Positions 18,944-35,251 of a stretch of DNA of 43,379 nucleotides are shown piece after piece. The notes under the pieces were generated by a model. The model saw only the letters and a list, made by a program, of their open reading frames with translations. It searched no databases and was not told the DNA's origin. A program made the position numbers and the translations under genes. Source of the DNA: Planktothrix paucivesiculata PCC 9631 (GTDB lineage: Bacteria > Cyanobacteriota > Cyanobacteriia > Cyanobacteriales > Microcoleaceae); assembly GCF_900009265.2 (NCBI RefSeq), contig NZ_LR735008.1:256312-299690 (forward strand). Direction: 5' to 3'. Numbering within the stretch: the first letter of the stretch is position 1; each line of letters opens with the position of its first letter.

Positions 18944-19177
18944 ATGACTGTAGCTCAACTGAGTGGCAACTATGAAATCGAGATTCCGGTGACAATTCGA
19001 GAAACATTGAAGTTGAAGCCGGGTGATGCGCTGGAAGTCAAAGTTGTAGATGGTGCTGTGGTGATGATGCCAGTTCCTAGCTACACATCACGCTTGTTTG
19101 CCAAACATCAAAACCTCTGGCAAGGGGTTGATGCCGTCGCCTACGTTCGCTCATTGCGGGATTCATGGCGCGATTAG
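18944..19177 (+). CDS. MazE/AbrB-fold antitoxin of a type II toxin-antitoxin pair
   Basis: The 77-residue protein has an N-terminal swapped-hairpin (SpoVT/AbrB) DNA-binding domain: YEIEIPVTIRETLKLKPGDALEVKVVDGA fits the family pattern. A short acidic/aromatic tail probably wraps the toxin. Its 3' end overlaps the following PIN-domain gene by 13 bp, the usual antitoxin-first arrangement. Antitoxins of this type bind their own promoter, so autoregulation at the sequence just before 18944 is likely but no operator was resolved. The pair lies in a repeat-rich strip beside the conflict operon. Confidence 0.85.
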   Translation: MTVAQLSGNYEIEIPVTIRETLKLKPGDALEVKVVDGAVVMMPVPSYTSRLFAKHQNLWQGVDAVAYVRSLRDSWRD

Positions 19178-19611
19178 CAGACCTTGATGGGCTTACAATC
19201 GCTTTGGATAGCGTGATTTTCATTTATGCTTTAGAAGGAAATCGGGAGTTTGGCGAGGTGGCTCGAAAAGTTTTTGAGTTGATCGAGCAGGGGAAGTGTC
19301 AAGGTGTCGCCTGTGACTTGGTGCTGGCTGAATTAATGGTTAAGCCCTTGCGTGAAGGATATCCCGAAATTGCCCAGGAGTACGCTCAGGATCTACCCTG
19401 CTTCCCCCATCTGAGGTTTTGCGCTGTGACTCAGACGGTTGTGATTGCAGCAGCCCGGTTGCGAGGGAGTAGCAATTTGGGCTTGATTGACGCTTTACAT
19501 TTAGCGACAGCCGTGGAAGCCGGATGCACTGTTTTTCTGACTAATGATGCCGCACTTCGTTATGCAAACGTGGGTTTAGATATTTGGATGCTTCGAGATA
19601 TTGTAGATTAA
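19165..19611 (+). CDS. PIN-domain (VapC-like) ribonuclease toxin
   Basis: The 148-residue protein contains the acidic residues of the PIN nuclease site: Asp in IALDSVIFIYALEG, Glu in LVLAELMVKP, Asp in LIDALHLATA, and the TND block near the end (FLTNDAAL). PIN toxins cleave RNA, often tRNA or rRNA, with magnesium. The start ATG overlaps the antitoxin gene in another frame, implying translational coupling. The gene appears intact and of normal length. It is followed by 380 bp of repeat-rich DNA. Confidence 0.88.
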   Translation: MARLADLDGLTIALDSVIFIYALEGNREFGEVARKVFELIEQGKCQGVACDLVLAELMVKPLREGYPEIAQEYAQDLPCFPHLRFCAVTQTVVIAAARLRGSSNLGLIDALHLATAVEAGCTVFLTNDAALRYANVGLDIWMLRDIVD

Positions 19612-19992
19612 TTTGCCACAAATTTCTCCTAACATCCTGTCCCCCTTTTTAATGGGGATAGAGGGGGATCTTCCCCTGGGGTTGGGGTGTAATCAAAATT
19701 AATGGCTATTTTTATTAATCCGTAGGGGCGGGTTCCGTCACAATATTTGATATTAACAAATAATCTGAATAAACCCGCCCAACCCCGCCACAATATTTGA
19801 TAATAATAAATAACCTGAATAAACCCGCCCAACCCCACCGGAATATCCAATTATTTGTTAATTATTGCGGGGTTCAGGGCAAGTTTAGGACATTTTGGGG
19901 TGGGAATTTTAGGTTGACGCGAACCCGCCCCTACGGGGTTTAATCAAAATTAATAGCGAAAGAAAAAAGGGCTAAGAATCCTGCACGCTAAC
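19612..19992. repeat. Repeat-rich intergenic region
   Basis: This gap contains no gene. It starts with a CCCCC...GGGGG palindrome (about 19640-19670) like other dispersed cyanobacterial repeats, then the inverted-repeat element described separately (19720-19936). Two 14-bp direct repeats TAATCAAAATTAAT (19690-19703 and 19941-19954) bracket that element. The right-hand end reaches the 3' end of the vWA/FGE gene. Confidence 0.7.
19720..19936. mobile_element. Non-autonomous inverted-repeat (MITE-like) element, 217 bp
   Basis: Perfect 16-bp terminal inverted repeats CCGTAGGGGCGGGTTC (19720-19735) and GAACCCGCCCCTACGG (19921-19936) enclose two degenerate tandem copies of a ~59-bp internal unit (19724-19782 and 19784-19842). 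The 14-bp direct repeats outside it could be a target duplication or part of a longer arm. No transposase is present; mobility is inferred. Confidence 0.55.
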
Positions 19993-22983
19993 CTACGACG
20001 CACCCACAACCCAACAAACCCGAAAGCCGCTGCTGCGGCCGAAGACGTTGGGGCACCCCCAACGATCAGCAGAACGGCCGTCATCAGAATAGTTGACCCA
20101 AGAACCGCCCCGCAGACAGTGTTTTCTTTCATCGCTTAATAAGTTGACTAAATTTTCAATGTTATAGATTTGATAACGATTATCATTCTTATTCTGCTCA
20201 TCCCAAACTTCTCCTTGTGTTGGCGCTCCTTCATAGTTTTCATGCCAAGGGTCAGCGCACCATTCCCAGACATTGCCATGCAGATCATACAACCCAAAGG
20301 AATTGGGAGGGAATTCATTAACGGGGGTGGTTTGTCCTCGATATTTCCCCTTGGGTTCGTCTGCATAGGTTCTGCTTACATGATAATTGGCTAAATCACT
20401 GGTTAGGGTTTCCCCAAAGTAAAACGGGGTTTGAGTTCCAGCACGACAAGCATATTCCCATTGGGCTTCTGAGGGTAAACGATAGGGGCGTCCGGTGCGT
20501 TGGAGTAGTCGGGCACAGAATTCGACTGCATCGTACCATTTAACCTTTTCTACGGGTCGGTTATCTCCTTTGAAGTTAGAAGGGTTAGGGTTGAGATCCC
20601 GTTGAATTTTGGGCCATTTAGCAACGGCTTTCCATTGGGCTTGAGTGATGGGATATTTAGCCATGAAAAAGGGGGGAACTGTAACTTGATGTTGGGGGCG
20701 TTGATCTTTGTCTCCTTCCCCCTCCAGTGAACCCATGAGGAATGTCCCCCCTGGAATATAAACCATATCTAATGTGACTCCATCCCCCAAGTCTTCGGTG
20801 AAGTACCGCGCTTGTTTGGTTTCCCGTTTGATTATTTCACCCTTTTTATTAACAGTAACGGTTTCAAAGGAGAAGGTTAGCAAACTTTCAAGAAGATCGA
20901 CATCGGGTTCTGGTGTCGGAAGTTCTGGAACCAGAATAACATCGGGTTCTGGTGTCGGAAGTTCTGGAAGCGGTAATGAAATTCCCTCAACTACAATAGG
21001 AGTTTGACGATGCAATTCCCTAGCCACTTCTAGCTTTTCTTCTGAGTTACTTTGGTTATATTTTTTGATGCCTCGACCATAAGTTAACAAGGGTTCAAAA
21101 CCATTATCAATCAGAGGTTCTGCCAAGGACTCGACAACCGAAATTAACCACATTTGTTCAGTTTTATTTTCATAAGCTGCTTGCAAAGCTTGAGCAATTT
21201 CCTGAGCAGCAGGTTGAGGGTTTCGTGCATAACTGAGCGCTAACCACCGTTGGGATTTTGCTAAATCTTGCTGAATGGGGTTAAGACTAGGTTGCAGCTT
21301 TTTTTCGACATAAGTTAAGAGAAAATCCGATAACTGATAAAAGCGTTCTATGCGAAAATTCTCATCGGTTTTTAACTGCATGAGCAACTCATTCCTGACA
21401 TCTCGATCTATTTGATATAAGCCATCATCAATGGATTTACATAAACTCGAAAGCAATAAATTAGCAACCGCTTCCCAAGGAATCTCTAAGGGATTATTTT
21501 GGCAATCTAATGTGAAATTTTTCCATAAGCAGTAAGCCAAATCTGGGGTTAAAGTTAAAGGAAAAGCAGCGTGATAAGCAAAATAGAGATGGGATTGACC
21601 ATAGATTTCACAAAAAGATTGTATCTGTTTTTTTACTGAATTTTCTCGTAAATCAGATTTAATTAGATTTAACTTTCTTCCGTTTTCTTGACCTTTTTTT
21701 AAAAGTCGATAACGGCTATATAACCTCTTAATTTTTTCTCCTCTAAGTACCCGAATAGTATCTTTTAACCCTTGATAACTTAACTCAAACATAGGGACAA
21801 TATTAGCTATTTTTTCTGCAAGTGTTCCCCGCCATTGATATTCAGGTAATGGGTTTAACCAAACAATTTGACGCACTCGCGGTTGTTGATTTTGACCTTT
21901 TAGAAGAATAGAAGCATCTACACCTGTAAAGTCAGATAAAGCAATACTAGGAACTAATTGGTGCAAAAACGCTTGAATTTCGGCTAGTTGTTGACGGTTT
22001 TTACTTCTTTGTCCTGCACCTGCATCACTAATGATTAAAACCACCGTTTTCTGAGGATTGAGTTGAGACAATATCTCGCTAATTCGTTCACCTTGGCGAT
22101 GATAAGGATCACGATAGAGATGTTCATTAGGATATTGCTCAAAATAGTAAAGATTAATTTTACTAAGATTTTTTCCTGGGAGTAATGTTTCTCGCAAGCG
22201 TTCAGTTAATGCTTCAAAGGGAATCATTGCACCCCGATGATCAATTAAAAGTAATAATTGAATTTGATTAACTCGCTTGGGTTGTAAAACAGGTTCTAAA
22301 TAAACTCCTTGGCGAATAATTTGATCAACAGTCGCTTCTAAATTTAATTCTTCTGGTCTTCCTTCTCGTTTCAATTGTCGTAAATTTCGCCAAGTTTTTT
22401 TCATTTGTTGGCGACTAACGGGTAAATAATCGGAAACTTTAAAATAATTGGTTTTAACCGCAGCAACAACTTGAACTTCATCTTCAATGTCTAAAATTGC
22501 TGTTGTCGGAAGTTCTGTTAAATTAGGGGATACTGGAACTGGATTTTCAGCTATTTCTTGACTGGCTAATTTTTGACTATCATTTTCATTACTATAATCT
22601 ATATTTTGGCATTGATCAAAAGATTCAAGAATAGATTCTGCGGGTAAACGCTGCGGTTGTTCAATTGGGGTTATATGAGTTGGGGTAGTTGGGGATAAAA
22701 TTTCAACAGCAGATAAAGGGGAATCTGAAACTCCGCCAGAAATTCGTTTCACGCTTTGGTTTTTCCAATCTAAAATCAGGGAGTCAAAGCAATCATTAAA
22801 AATCCGTTGTTGTTCTTCAGACTTAACCCACAGGGTTTGACATAAACGTTTTAAAGTCGATAAATTCTCGACACCAAACCCACGTTTTAAAGATTCTATT
22901 AGTAATTGATATTCATCTATTCCTAAAGAAAACCCCGCTTCACGAAGTTGAGAAAATAATTCATAGAGAGGAAGTTTACTCAT
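19993..22983 (-). CDS. SAV_2336-like/vWA protein with C-terminal FGE (C-type-lectin fold) sensor domain; candidate DGR target
   Basis: The protein has 996 residues. Residues 1-80 are a helical domain like the SAV_2336 N-terminal domain, and 80-190 is a polar linker. About 240-390 is a vWA-like domain with a degenerate MIDAS (LLLLIDHRGAM instead of DxSxS; later VLIISDAGAGQ). About 400-680 is a helical region, followed by a hinge of two PTPEPDV repeats. About 733-996 is a formylglycine-generating-enzyme/sulfatase-modifying domain (MVYIPGGTFLMGS, RLPSEAQWEYACRAG, LYDLHGNVWEWCAD, RGGSW, GFRV). The last ~35 codons look like a DGR variable region. The start overlaps the MoxR gene by 8 bp, so the genes are coupled. 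As in other vWA-MoxR systems, the likely role is a sensor/adaptor; formylglycine synthesis is unlikely. Confidence 0.88.
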   Translation of the reverse strand: MSKLPLYELFSQLREAGFSLGIDEYQLLIESLKRGFGVENLSTLKRLCQTLWVKSEEQQRIFNDCFDSLILDWKNQSVKRISGGVSDSPLSAVEILSPTTPTHITPIEQPQRLPAESILESFDQCQNIDYSNENDSQKLASQEIAENPVPVSPNLTELPTTAILDIEDEVQVVAAVKTNYFKVSDYLPVSRQQMKKTWRNLRQLKREGRPEELNLEATVDQIIRQGVYLEPVLQPKRVNQIQLLLLIDHRGAMIPFEALTERLRETLLPGKNLSKINLYYFEQYPNEHLYRDPYHRQGERISEILSQLNPQKTVVLIISDAGAGQRSKNRQQLAEIQAFLHQLVPSIALSDFTGVDASILLKGQNQQPRVRQIVWLNPLPEYQWRGTLAEKIANIVPMFELSYQGLKDTIRVLRGEKIKRLYSRYRLLKKGQENGRKLNLIKSDLRENSVKKQIQSFCEIYGQSHLYFAYHAAFPLTLTPDLAYCLWKNFTLDCQNNPLEIPWEAVANLLLSSLCKSIDDGLYQIDRDVRNELLMQLKTDENFRIERFYQLSDFLLTYVEKKLQPSLNPIQQDLAKSQRWLALSYARNPQPAAQEIAQALQAAYENKTEQMWLISVVESLAEPLIDNGFEPLLTYGRGIKKYNQSNSEEKLEVARELHRQTPIVVEGISLPLPELPTPEPDVILVPELPTPEPDVDLLESLLTFSFETVTVNKKGEIIKRETKQARYFTEDLGDGVTLDMVYIPGGTFLMGSLEGEGDKDQRPQHQVTVPPFFMAKYPITQAQWKAVAKWPKIQRDLNPNPSNFKGDNRPVEKVKWYDAVEFCARLLQRTGRPYRLPSEAQWEYACRAGTQTPFYFGETLTSDLANYHVSRTYADEPKGKYRGQTTPVNEFPPNSFGLYDLHGNVWEWCADPWHENYEGAPTQGEVWDEQNKNDNRYQIYNIENLVNLLSDERKHCLRGGSWVNYSDDGRSADRWGCPNVFGRSSGFRVCWVVGAS
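20005..20115 (-). other. Putative DGR variable region (VR) at the 3' end of the FGE domain
   Basis: This codes residues 957-993. Framework residues of FGE-type DGR targets (RGGSW, RSA, R, P, R, GFRV) are kept. The positions between them are GTC, AAC, TAT (963-965), GAT, GAC, GGC (967-969), GAT (973), TGG, GGG, TGC (975-977), GTC, TTC, GGC (980-982), and AGC, AGC (984-985). Thirteen of these 15 codons end in C or T, as expected if they came from AAC or AAT codons by mutagenesis at adenines. From Gly960 to Gly986 (81 nt) I count only 10 adenines. No template repeat or reverse transcriptase is in the window. Confidence 0.6.
20900..20969 (-). repeat. 39-bp in-frame tandem repeat (hinge of the vWA/FGE protein)
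   Basis: A 31-bp identical segment occurs at 20900-20930 and 20939-20969, a 39-bp period that encodes two copies of ELPTPEPDV. It is a Pro/Glu-rich flexible linker between the helical region and the FGE domain. Copy number could vary between strains. Confidence 0.85.
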
Positions 22984-23896
22984 CTAATTCACCTCTTTCT
23001 AATAGATAATTCTGATGATCTTCCCAACTCTTGAGCAGAACACTAGAAAAGGGTAATCCACCCTTGTTTAATTCTTGAATGACTTGATCTTTATCATAGC
23101 GTTTTAAAACTGTAAACCAGTCAATTAGTTCACTGGTGCTAACTTTTTTTCCGCTCATTTCCTCTCGTAGAGTTTCAAATCGTTCAATTACAGTTTTCAC
23201 CAAATTCTGATCTAGCACATCATTAAAACGACTTTCTAAAATTTTTTCCAGTTGGTCTGATTCAGGAAATTCAAGAAAATAAACTAAACAACGGCGTAAA
23301 AACGCATCGGATAAATCTCGTTCATCATTACTAGCAAGAAAAATAATAGGGGAATATTTAGCTTGAATAGTTTCTCCTATTTCTTCAATCACAAATTGTT
23401 TTTTTTCCAAAAGTTCCAAGAGATCATTAGGGAAATCTAAATCAGCTTTATCAATTTCATCTAACAAAACAACGGCTCTTTTTTGGGTTTCAAAGGCTTG
23501 CTTAAAAATCCCTGGTATGATATAGTTAGAAGGCTCATCTAATTGTTTAATTTTTTTCTCTGAAAGCCGATTAAGTTGAGCTAAATTAGCATCTCTAAGT
23601 TGTTTAATTCCTTCATATCGATAGCATAAATCTGAAGCTCGACTGGTAGATTTAATCGTGCGCTCAAAATAAGGTAAATCTAATTCATAAGCAACCGCCG
23701 CAGCTAAACAACTTTTCCCACATCCCGGTTCACCTTTTAATAGTAAAGGTCGGTCTAATTCTATCGCTAAATTAACGGCTTCTATTAACCCTTCTTTAGC
23801 AATATAGGGATAAACCTTTTTATCAGCGTACTCCACAGGTTTTTCGGGTTTTGTTCCTGTGTAATGATAGCGAGCATCGAAAATAGCATATTTCAT
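22976..23896 (-). CDS. MoxR-family AAA+ ATPase
   Basis: The 306-residue protein has Walker A GEPGCGKS (55-62), Walker B VVLLDEIDKAD with D146/E147, sensor-1 Asn190 in FLASNDERDLS, and arginines in FLRRC that fit the Arg finger. The small lid domain follows. All key residues are intact, so it should hydrolyse ATP. MoxR ATPases usually work with vWA-domain partners to remodel target proteins; the overlapping downstream gene encodes such a vWA protein. The upstream gene ends 10 bp before this one, and GAGGT lies about 7 bases ahead of the ATG. In the ternary system it is the probable chaperone or switch. Confidence 0.92.
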   Translation of the reverse strand: MKYAIFDARYHYTGTKPEKPVEYADKKVYPYIAKEGLIEAVNLAIELDRPLLLKGEPGCGKSCLAAAVAYELDLPYFERTIKSTSRASDLCYRYEGIKQLRDANLAQLNRLSEKKIKQLDEPSNYIIPGIFKQAFETQKRAVVLLDEIDKADLDFPNDLLELLEKKQFVIEEIGETIQAKYSPIIFLASNDERDLSDAFLRRCLVYFLEFPESDQLEKILESRFNDVLDQNLVKTVIERFETLREEMSGKKVSTSELIDWFTVLKRYDKDQVIQELNKGGLPFSSVLLKSWEDHQNYLLERGELDE

Positions 23897-23906
23897 CTGT
23901 TTTACC

Positions 23907-25076
23907 TCATTTTAAGATTGAATAAGACTCAAATATTGACTGATCATACTGGCACAAATCACTATAAATATACATTAAAACAGTTTCAGGAACTCCTTGA
24001 TTTGTTTTAGATAAAATCTCTTGAGCCGTTTTCCGAGGATTAACTGTTAAGTGTCGGGGAAGATAATCAGTTTCTTGGTTTAGCCAGGGAATCAAATCAT
24101 TTTCTGGGCAAATTAGTTTAAGTTTTGGTAATTTTATCGGCTCTGTTATTGACCAATTTTCATTAATATTACCGACCCAATTTGGACACCAATTTTCAAT
24201 TTCGGGTTCATAAGCCAATAAAAAAACTAGGAGCTTATTACAAGAATTAGGTTGTGCTTGTCGTGGAACCAATCGATCACATAAGGGAAACCAAAATTGA
24301 TCAATGAATTCTTGAGGATATTCTGAACTATTTGCTTGTAAATCTTCAAAAATTAAAACAATATTATTATATTGAAGCTGTTTTTTTAAAGCCCTAATAA
24401 TCCTAGGTTGATTTTCTTCTAATAATTTTCTTGTATTAAATGGTTCTCCGACTTTTTCACCTAGCCATTTCCATAGATTTTTCGAGTCAGATATATAGGA
24501 TCTAAAAGAACATCTATAAATTATTTTTTTAGAATATTTTGGTTTAGTCATCAATCTCTTAATAATCCAGTTTTGACCATGCCTTTCTTTGCCATAAACT
24601 AATAAACAAGCAGCAGGTTTATTCTGTTGTTCCCAATCCGCAAAAATACCGGAAGGCGTTCTAAAATCAAGTCGTAGAAGCGATTGATAAACTTGTTCTG
24701 CTTGTTCATCCTCCTCCTGATTTGAGTCTGTATGTTCTGTCAGATATTGCTGAAACTCAGGACTTGCATATTGAGTTTGTAGCCACTTTGAAAATAGTTT
24801 TTCTCTTTCAGTTCCTTGTTCTTCCCAGAATTTAGATAAATTATTCTCTCTCTTGTCTTTATTTATTTCCTCAAGATAATGATCCTGAATTTTTATATAA
24901 ATATTACGAGTAGTTCTAGTATTGTCTTTCTTTAATTTATTTTTTACTTCTCTATCATTCAAAATTTCATCATCACAACTTAAATATTTTGCTTTTAAAA
25001 TCTCCTTGTGCAAAGAAGTTAACTTGTATTCTTTTTGTAACCAGTCTAAAAAAATATCTGGATGAGGAACTTTCAT
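23907..25076 (-). CDS. iSTAND-like (degenerate P-loop) regulator with N-terminal helix-turn-helix-like domain
   Basis: The protein has 389 residues. About 15-70 is a small helical, helix-turn-helix-like region, and 75-140 is polar and acidic. About 150-350 has the outline of a STAND/AAA NTPase: a strand-loop-helix at LLVYGKERHGQNWIIKRL, where the P-loop Gly-Lys-Ser/Thr is replaced by Gly-Gln-Asn (167-169), and a Walker-B-like strand NIVLIFEDLQ (Glu244, Asp245). This matches inactive STAND modules described in prokaryotic conflict systems, where they act as scaffolds or nucleotide sensors. It is the first gene of the operon (iSTAND, MoxR, vWA/FGE), so its promoter probably lies in 25077-25300. 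No effector domain is visible. The family assignment is by pattern only. Confidence 0.65.
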   Translation of the reverse strand: MKVPHPDIFLDWLQKEYKLTSLHKEILKAKYLSCDDEILNDREVKNKLKKDNTRTTRNIYIKIQDHYLEEINKDKRENNLSKFWEEQGTEREKLFSKWLQTQYASPEFQQYLTEHTDSNQEEDEQAEQVYQSLLRLDFRTPSGIFADWEQQNKPAACLLVYGKERHGQNWIIKRLMTKPKYSKKIIYRCSFRSYISDSKNLWKWLGEKVGEPFNTRKLLEENQPRIIRALKKQLQYNNIVLIFEDLQANSSEYPQEFIDQFWFPLCDRLVPRQAQPNSCNKLLVFLLAYEPEIENWCPNWVGNINENWSITEPIKLPKLKLICPENDLIPWLNQETDYLPRHLTVNPRKTAQEILSKTNQGVPETVLMYIYSDLCQYDQSIFESYSILK

Positions 25077-25349
25077 ATTGGGTTAACAACTTAGGTTAGA
25101 CACACAGGAAGGAATTTGACAAGTAACTGGAAAAATTTTCCGCTCTTTTCCTCAACAGTGGAAAGTTTTTCCAATTTATAGAGGATATCAAAAGCCCGTT
25201 GTACATTGTGTTTAAAGGTTGAGAGATTAGCAAAACCGAGTTAGTTTCCTTAACCTCACCGAACCTCGAAAATTTGATAGCACAACGGTTTACCTCTCTG
25301 TAGGAAAGCCGTTGATCACTGATTGACCAACGACCAAACAAATTTACTT

Positions 25350-25889
25350 ATGTCTAGTTTAACAGCATCACCGACTCGATTTCAACGATCGATCTTTTTT
25401 GATTTCCAAAGGGCCAAATCTAGTCCCAACTATCAGAATCGCCTGGCCATTCACTACGAGGATTCCCCTGGTGATACCCTCAACGATTCCGATAAAAAAG
25501 GGTTTAGTAAATGGGTAGGCCAACTTTATCAAGAACTTCCGTTTCCAGTCGAATATGTTGCAGGACAACCATATAAAACGGCTGCTGAAATGACTGAAGA
25601 TGTCCGTCAAACAGGCGTATTAAAAATCAGCACTGATTTTAATGATCCCGTAGTGTTGTCTTCTCAAGAAAATCTTTATTTCCGGGCTACTCATGACAGC
25701 CATCATATCTTAGGAGGGTGGGATTTTTCTTGGGAAGGGGAGTTGGCAGCTTGTCAATATTTCTGCACTCTAACTAACAATTCATTATATCACAGAATCC
25801 TGTTTTCTGAACTAATTCTTCAGGCAGCAAGTTGTTTACATTTAGGGGGTTTTACAGAGCAGAAACTCGTTTTAACCTTGCCCTATTAA
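25350..25889 (+). CDS. Unknown protein with ATHDSHH motif
   Basis: The protein has 179 residues from the ATG at 25350; a TTG at 25323 in the same frame would add nine residues and is less likely. The sequence looks like a compact globular domain without membrane segments. A histidine-rich block, YFRATHDSHHILGGWDF, followed by GELAACQYFCTL, could bind a metal or form a hydrolase site. I do not recognise the family. It is divergent from the conflict operon, with 273 bp between the two starts, and is followed on the same strand by two more unknown genes. A GTAGGGGCGAGG palindrome follows its stop. Confidence 0.6.
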   Translation: MSSLTASPTRFQRSIFFDFQRAKSSPNYQNRLAIHYEDSPGDTLNDSDKKGFSKWVGQLYQELPFPVEYVAGQPYKTAAEMTEDVRQTGVLKISTDFNDPVVLSSQENLYFRATHDSHHILGGWDFSWEGELAACQYFCTLTNNSLYHRILFSELILQAASCLHLGGFTEQKLVLTLPY

Positions 25890-35177: not shown

Positions 35178-35251
35178 AGAAACCGGGTTTCTAGCCTTGA
35201 TTTAGGGTAAAAAATCTATATTATCTATATTGTTTCTGAAACCCGGTTTCT
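35178..35251. terminator. Inverted repeat between convergent genes
   Basis: AGAAACCGGGTTTC (35178-35191) and GAAACCCGGTTTCT (35238-35251) are perfect 14-bp inverted arms separated by 46 bp, between the SRPBCC-like gene and bvdR. Each arm is also self-palindromic (AAACCGGGTTT, with a small mismatch). This is a dispersed cyanobacterial repeat type that probably acts as a bidirectional terminator here. Confidence 0.55.

What the first reader, a model, noticed from the sequence alone, without database searches (positions are those of the whole stretch)
20005..20115. Likely DGR variable region at the end of a conflict-system sensor
The last ~37 codons of the vWA/FGE gene keep the framework residues of FGE-type C-type-lectin folds (RGGSW, RSA, GFRV), while the positions between them are unusual. 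Of 15 expected variable codons, 13 end in C or T (GTC, TAT, GAC, GGC, TTC, AGC and so on), as expected from AAC/AAT template codons mutated at adenines. From Gly960 to Gly986 (81 nt) there are only 10 adenines in an AT-rich genome. The region is at the very 3' end of the gene, the position required for retrohoming. Cyanobacterial DGRs are known to target FGE-domain proteins, often at remote sites.
Basis: partly seen in the sequence, partly recalled or inferred. Interest (0 to 1): 0.9.

Follow-up and report, generated by a model that had tools for sequence, protein, structure and literature searches.

The report
Orphaned hypervariable region in Planktothrix sensor
The end of this cyanobacterial defence-type gene was scrambled by a known mutation machine (a diversity-generating retroelement), but the machine was not found in the genome assembly that holds it, and related species carry a different machine's scrambled cassette on the same gene.

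Summary
The vWA-FGE gene (19993-22983, minus strand) ends in a DGR variable region (VR). A same-genus genome (G009) holds a DGR cassette with target, Avd (NCBIfam equivalog), RT and template repeat (TR). There VR and TR differ at 13 of 26 TR adenines and 0 of 96 other sites. The window VR differs from that TR at 16 of 25 adenines and 7 of 94 others (p=1e-8); controlled for region and codon position, 16/25 versus 4/21 (p=0.003).

A paralogous VR there is followed by an Avd cut after about 56 codons, the remnant of a lost cassette. Of 10 genomes of the genus (Planktothrix), 9 have VRs and 3 have RT plus TR.

In two sister genomes the orthologous gene carries a VR of a second DGR family; a second gene shows a similar exchange. 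So: a known kind of element, orphaned here, with exchangeable VR cassettes.

The parts
19993..22983 (-). vWA-FGE gene (996 aa), target protein carrying the VR
   Evidence: ORF; FGE-sulfatase PF03781 residues 739-990; weak VWA_CoxE residues 195-267 (20.2 bits, below the 26.4 cut-off)
19997..20115 (-). Variable region core, family 1 (homologous to the G009 TR)
   Evidence: 16/25 TR adenines and 7/94 other TR bases differ; 3-nt gap set aside
20029..20097 (-). Variable codons 963-985
19997..20028 (-). Conserved 3' end of the VR (putative IMH), one difference from the G009 TR
   Evidence: TR position 113
19955..20134 (-). Minimal segment whose family differs between the window gene and its orthologs in G003 and G007; the 5' breakpoint may lie as far up as 20293-20345
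   Evidence: DNA homology to both orthologs stops at 20134; homology to the own-genome family-1 paralog runs to 19955
22976..23896 (-). MoxR-type AAA+ ATPase
   Evidence: AAA_5 56.1 bits; bpMoxR 29.0 bits (cut-off 27)
23907..25076 (-). iSTAND protein, third component of the operon
   Evidence: PF19995 iSTAND 88.2 bits

Best explanation
The stretch is a variable region written by a diversity-generating retroelement into the C-type-lectin (FGE) end of a vWA protein in a MoxR-vWA-iSTAND operon. Shown: it is homologous to the family-1 TR of a same-genus genome, and its differences concentrate at TR adenines. Shown for the assembly: no DGR RT and no TR were found, and a paralogous locus keeps a VR with a cut-off Avd. 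Inferred: adenine-mutagenised cDNA from a family-1 TR was retrohomed into this gene, or into a donor whose 3' end was then copied in by recombination between FGE paralogs; the cassette was later deleted; and the VR now stands as a largely frozen recognition surface that drifts normally unless an RT is regained. Its role as a ligand sensor that signals through MoxR is taken from the proposals of Kaur 2020 and Dore 2024 for related systems.
For: G009 cassette: VR versus TR 13/26 A and 0/96 non-A; Avd NF033474 144 bits, cut-off 80; RT with GNLTSQ and YVDDF in its translation. Window VR 16/25 A versus 7/94 non-A, p=1e-8; restricted to the variable segment and codon positions 1-2: 16/25 versus 4/21, p=0.003, third positions 1/23. 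Own-genome paralog: another family-1 VR with shared flanks followed by Avd codons 1-56 and then a palindromic repeat. No DGR RT: 11 of 11 RVT_1 loci in the genome show the QGG[VI]ISP motif that I know from group II intron RTs, none LTSQ; at E up to 1e-10 the G009 RT finds one G000 match, 30% identical. No TR. In G001 (P. rubescens PCC 7821, 5 contigs) the segment syntenic with half of Avd, RT and TR is missing while the VR remains.
Against: The window VR has 7 non-A differences and a 3-nt gap from the G009 TR. Four of the 7 positions also differ in other family-1 VRs, only one of them to the same base, and may reflect a lost, slightly different TR; 3 (TR positions 14, 27, 36) are private. The genome is a draft of 184 contigs at 97.5% completeness, so a cassette could sit in the missing part. 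Freezing was not observed: no reads or same-species strains were examined. No stem-loop was found after the VR, unlike the BPP-1 element as I recall it. Not every VR in an RT-bearing genome is A-only: two of three in G002 have 4 non-A differences from the best TR, and one of three in G004 has 1.
Confidence: 0.85

Rival explanations
1. The DGR is still active in trans: RT and TR sit on a plasmid or an unassembled part of this genome, and this VR is an ordinary remote target.
For: The assembly is a draft. Related RTs at 64-72% identity lie on 6 cyanobacterial plasmid records (Anabaena 90, Fischerella, Nostoc, Acaryochloris and two Microcystis). Kaur 2020 reports TRs elsewhere in the genome and Vallota-Eastman 2020 reports remote targets.
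Against: G001, 5 contigs and rated 100% complete, also has 3 VRs and no DGR RT or TR found. The paralog locus is a remnant inside a 314-kb contig. TR-like matches on plasmids (7 records, some in FGE genes) are not from Planktothrix, and the exact VR 3' end had 0 hits in viral contigs; both searches warn that records near the window's own genome may be left out.
Confidence: 0.15
2. Ordinary rapid evolution or paralog recombination of an FGE lectin surface without any retroelement.
For: FGE genes are multi-copy and look recombined; the VR also carries non-A differences.
Against: More differences at adenines in 27 of 27 VRs tested (Fisher p below 0.05 each), still below 0.05 in 25 of 27 after the position control; A-only pattern of the cassette VRs in G009 (13 A, 0 non-A) and G004 (12 A, 0 non-A).
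Confidence: 0.03
3. The family-1 VR was written on this gene by retrohoming of a family-1 cDNA directly over a family-2 VR, not by paralog recombination.
For: The 5' switch point (20134) lies near the 5' end of TR-VR homology.
Against: The segment just upstream (20135-20200) is 95.5% identical to 3 of the 4 other family-1 genes compared and 85-91% to the 6 family-2 genes (the fourth family-1 gene, the own-genome paralog, is only 78.8%), and the shared 3' tail runs to 19955, beyond the TR homology. This suggests a tract longer than a TR.
Confidence: 0.12

Closest known systems
Cyanobacterial DGRs with CLec targets and remote variable proteins (Vallota-Eastman 2020, PMC7517822; passages seen)
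   Same: C-type-lectin VR near the 3' end of the gene, adenine-specific differences, remote copies, DGRs also on plasmids of Anabaena 90 and Fischerella
   Different: There remote targets are associated with a DGR of the same genome; here no RT or TR was found in the assembly. 'orphan' and 'loss' had 0 occurrences in the main text. The paper was not among the results for DGR plus Planktothrix
MoxR-vWA ternary conflict systems, iSTAND subtype, and the DGR-linked FGS domain (Kaur 2020, PMC7159879; 12 of 28 passages seen)
   Same: MoxR, a vWA-type protein fused to FGS/FGE, iSTAND as third component
   Different: In the passages seen the FGS domain and the DGR link are described for VMAP systems; this operon is iSTAND-type and no DGR was found with it
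Degenerate DGR loci of Thiohalocapsa PB-PSB1 (Dore 2024, PMC10907252; passages seen)
   Same: VRs kept where RT or TR is missing, with MITE-like repeats in place of the RT
   Different: That genome keeps one complete locus per class; none was found in the window genome. Exchange of VR family on one orthologous gene was not in the passages read

Membership tests
DGR variable region (target site) | Homologous TR with differences at TR adenines | tested here: met
   TR in G009, same genus, not the same genome: 16/25 A versus 7/94 non-A; control
DGR variable region (target site) | VR at the 3' end of a C-type-lectin-fold gene with a conserved 3' end (IMH) | tested here: met
   FGE residues 739-990; 3' end 19997-20028 with one difference from the TR. 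The fold itself was not modelled
Complete DGR | DGR reverse transcriptase in the same genome | tested here: not met
   11 of 11 RVT_1 loci carry the QGG-ISP motif; one match to the G009 RT at E up to 1e-10, 30% identical. Draft assembly
Complete DGR | TR in the same genome | tested here: not met
   VRs and short chance matches only
Complete DGR | Avd accessory protein | tested here: not met
   Only the first 56 codons, at the paralog locus
Active DGR target | Polymorphism within a population at adenine codons | not testable with these tools
   No reads or same-species strains were held
Active DGR target | Stem-loop after the VR (BPP-1 type; recalled) | tested here: not met
   three folds, z-scores 1.14, -0.01 and -0.42; no inverted repeat of 6 or more bases in 19930-20030
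iSTAND ternary conflict system | MoxR ATPase plus iSTAND protein in the operon | tested here: met
   AAA_5 56.1 bits and iSTAND 88.2 bits
iSTAND ternary conflict system | vWA co-chaperone | tested here: inconclusive
   VWA_CoxE 20.2 bits, below the 26.4 cut-off; SAV_2336_NTERM 38.8 bits, below its cut-off of 200

The most novel reading that the evidence does not exclude
In Planktothrix the sensor gene, its 3' VR cassette and the DGR machinery behave as separately replaceable parts. VR cassettes of two DGR families are exchanged on the same orthologous genes, and RT-TR cassettes are lost (and perhaps regained through mobile elements), so a lineage is diversified in bursts and then lives on a frozen repertoire of recognition surfaces.
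Probability: 0.25. Interest if true: 0.7.

Novelty: new variant of a known kind. Interest (0 to 1): 0.5.

Why it matters
It gives a series within one genus (cassette present, Avd without RT, truncated Avd, VR only) in which to ask what happens to hypervariable immune-like sensors after their mutator is lost. Exchange of VR families on one gene suggests a way for a target to change which DGR serves it, testable by population sequencing of a filamentous cyanobacterium.

Tried and rejected
Low adenine count as proof: weak, since 16 of 970 windows of the gene are as low. Downstream stem-loop: none found. DGR carried by a phage or virus: the exact VR 3' end had 0 hits in viral contigs, and the 86 phage records with an RT relative were all under 60% identity. 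Transfer of the whole FGE domain from the paralog: suggested at first by DNA homology from 20874, rejected because orthologs share the FGE body up to 20134. All non-A differences as drift after loss: doubtful, since 4 of 7 positions also differ in other family-1 VRs. One-sided Mann-Whitney of non-A counts, VRs with a same-family RT in their genome (n=7) versus orphans (n=20), p=0.0013: consistent with drift after loss but confounded by TR divergence between species. PADLOC gave 7 weak AAA-type matches for the MoxR protein and none for the other two.

Rows dropped before counts: the weak match G004:C19:94391 and the G006:C3 fragment (only the VR 3' end) were left out of the 27 VRs; the three TRs were not counted as VRs; alignment gaps were set aside. 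G009_C1 (family 2) and G002_C43 (family 1) were counted as orphans because their genomes hold an RT of the other family only. The match list was cut by the tool ('more matches are not listed'); the per-genome best E-values were complete.

Full report
Observation. The window gene at 19993-22983 (minus strand) ends in HCLRGGSW-VNYSDDG-RSA-D-R-WGCPNVFGRSS-GFRVCWVVGAS. The stated counts check out: 81 nt from Gly960 to Gly986 hold 10 adenines; by my codon choice 16 of 18 variable codons end in C/T and 12 of 18 in C, against 52% and 16% gene-wide. The C-ending excess is unlikely by chance (p=1.8e-6); the low adenine count is less telling.

Genus. The genome search placed the window in G000 (6.15 Mb, 184 contigs, 97.5% complete). 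G001, labelled same genus, has a contig of 5,464,396 bases, the length of LR882958.1, Planktothrix rubescens PCC 7821, which the VR 3'-end pattern found with three matches, as many as the VRs of G001. I therefore take the window to be Planktothrix; the strain was not named.

The template. A search of 98 genomes, the own one included, with the VR led to G009. There, reading along one strand, come a vWA-FGE target gene (split over several ORFs), an Avd of 118 aa (NF033474, 144 bits, cut-off 80), an RT of 364 aa (RVT_1 80.5 bits) and, just after it, a TR; VR to TR spans about 1.9 kb. The VR differs from the TR at 13 of 26 adenines and 0 of 96 other positions. The window VR differs from this TR at 16 of 25 adenines and 7 of 94 others, with a 3-nt gap (p=1e-8). 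Because adenines cluster in the variable segment and at codon positions 1-2, I repeated the test within that segment and those positions: 16/25 versus 4/21, p=0.003, with third positions 1/23.

The machinery is missing. PF00078 finds 11 loci in G000; all 11 show QGG[VI]ISP and none LTSQ, so I read them as group II intron RTs (motif knowledge recalled). At E up to 1e-10 the G009 RT finds one G000 match, 30% identical and lying in one of those loci. TR searches find VRs only: two of family 1 and three of family 2; the VR search at E up to 10 adds only partial FGE and short matches. One family-1 VR, at G000:C137, is followed by Avd codons 1-56 and then by a palindromic repeat. In G001 the region is syntenic with G009, but the 1.6 kb holding the second half of Avd, the RT and the TR is gone and the VR remains. 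In G008 a family-2 VR, a further ORF and a full-length Avd are followed by genes that I recognise (recalled, not searched) as ribosomal and elongation-factor genes, with no RT in the 16 kb looked at. Of 10 genomes of the genus, 9 have at least one VR match and 3 have RT plus TR: G009 (family 1), G002 and G004 (family 2); the tenth, G005, is 73% complete.

Survey. For 27 VRs compared with the best TR, 27 differ more at adenines than elsewhere (Fisher p below 0.05 each). Pooled: orphans (20) 299/561 A and 119/1838 non-A; VRs with a same-family RT in their genome (7) 87/199 A and 9/639 non-A. Of those 7, four have no non-A difference, G004_C19_158 has 1, and two in G002 have 4 each; the G002 TR itself carries a small deletion relative to that of G004. 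With the position control, orphans 280/519 versus 34/438 and RT-bearing 79/180 versus 0/154; 25 of 27 remain below 0.05, the exceptions being G000_C160a and G003_C26. Orphans carry more non-A differences (one-sided p=0.0013), as expected of drift after loss, but divergence of the lost TRs may contribute: 4 of the window's 7 non-A positions also differ in other family-1 VRs, one of them to the same base.

Exchange of VR families. Orthologs of the window gene lie in G003 (homology to the window from 20134 through the operon to 26685, upstream side only; split by a TnpB-like gene) and in G007 (window homology on both sides, but window 22323-25550, with the 5' part of the gene, MoxR and iSTAND, has no match there). 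The vWA parts are 90% identical in protein in G003 and 97% over residues 221-662 in G007, and the FGE body is about 86-92% identical in DNA. DNA homology to both stops at 20134, and both end in GFRVVS(L/S)PPAWTL. These VRs match the family-2 TR of G004: 11/29 A and 1/91 non-A in G003, 14/29 and 5/91 in G007. At the syntenic site in G006 the operon is gone but a family-1 3' end remains. At 10 family-diagnostic sites upstream of the VR the window gene is family 2 at 6 consecutive sites (20704-20345), family 1 at 3 and neither at 1; from 20133 down it is family 1 at 35 of 38. The simplest reading is a family-2 gene that received a family-1 3' end by recombination; the upstream signal is thin and the direction tentative. 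The paralog gene at G000:C137 (family 1) shows a similar picture: G002:C11 matches its body at 86-90% up to the VR start, and G004:C19, syntenic upstream, matches parts of it at 81-95% (one stretch of about 1.1 kb has no match), yet both carry family 2, while G009 carries family 1.

Function. Next to the target gene are a MoxR-type ATPase and an iSTAND protein, the MoxR-vWA-iSTAND arrangement of Kaur 2020. The vWA assignment rests on weak matches. That the lectin end senses a ligand and signals through MoxR is the proposal of Dore 2024 for related systems; it is not tested here.

Known and new. DGR-diversified FGS/CLec domains in cyanobacterial conflict proteins, remote targets, and degenerate DGR loci are in print (passages seen). 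A search for DGR with Planktothrix returned one paper, on Nodularia (listing only). The listings of searches (25, 6, 6, 10 and 10 rows shown, of 1,820, 6, 6, 2,621 and 683) held no title that I recognised as describing exchange of VR families on an orthologous gene; the library lacks most subscription journals.

Noticed in passing
window 19165-19611: PIN-domain ORF (PF01850, 52.4 bits) just downstream of the VR gene, on the opposite strand.
   Followed up: partly
window 35178-35251; L065 10473-10537; L063 9153-9418: A palindromic repeat with AGAAACC-GGTTT ends occurs in the window and just after the cut ends of Avd in G000 and G002, reminiscent of the MITE-like repeats reported at degenerate DGR loci.
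   Followed up: partly
L059 11084-14045: In G009, which keeps Avd, RT and TR, the target gene itself is split over several ORFs.
   Followed up: no
L160 4712-6007: In G003 an IS605/TnpB-like gene sits between the vWA and FGE parts of the window gene's ortholog.
   Followed up: no
L161 5310-7871: In G007 the ortholog has lost its 5' part together with MoxR and iSTAND, and its FGE domain carries an in-frame PPQPPFPRGA repeat.
   Followed up: no
G000 contigs C13 and C162: Two contigs of equal length (3,719 bases) give identical intron RT loci, perhaps an assembly duplicate.
   Followed up: partly
G018:C1 about 1006832-1022941: A single-contig genome has 8 of its 10 TR-like matches clustered here, and its best match to the G009 RT is only 28% identical: possibly another orphan VR array, not tested for adenine bias.
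   Followed up: no
NZ_LR882951.1 100239-100710: A Planktothrix agardhii plasmid carries an FGE gene 64% identical in DNA to part of the window FGE.
   Followed up: no
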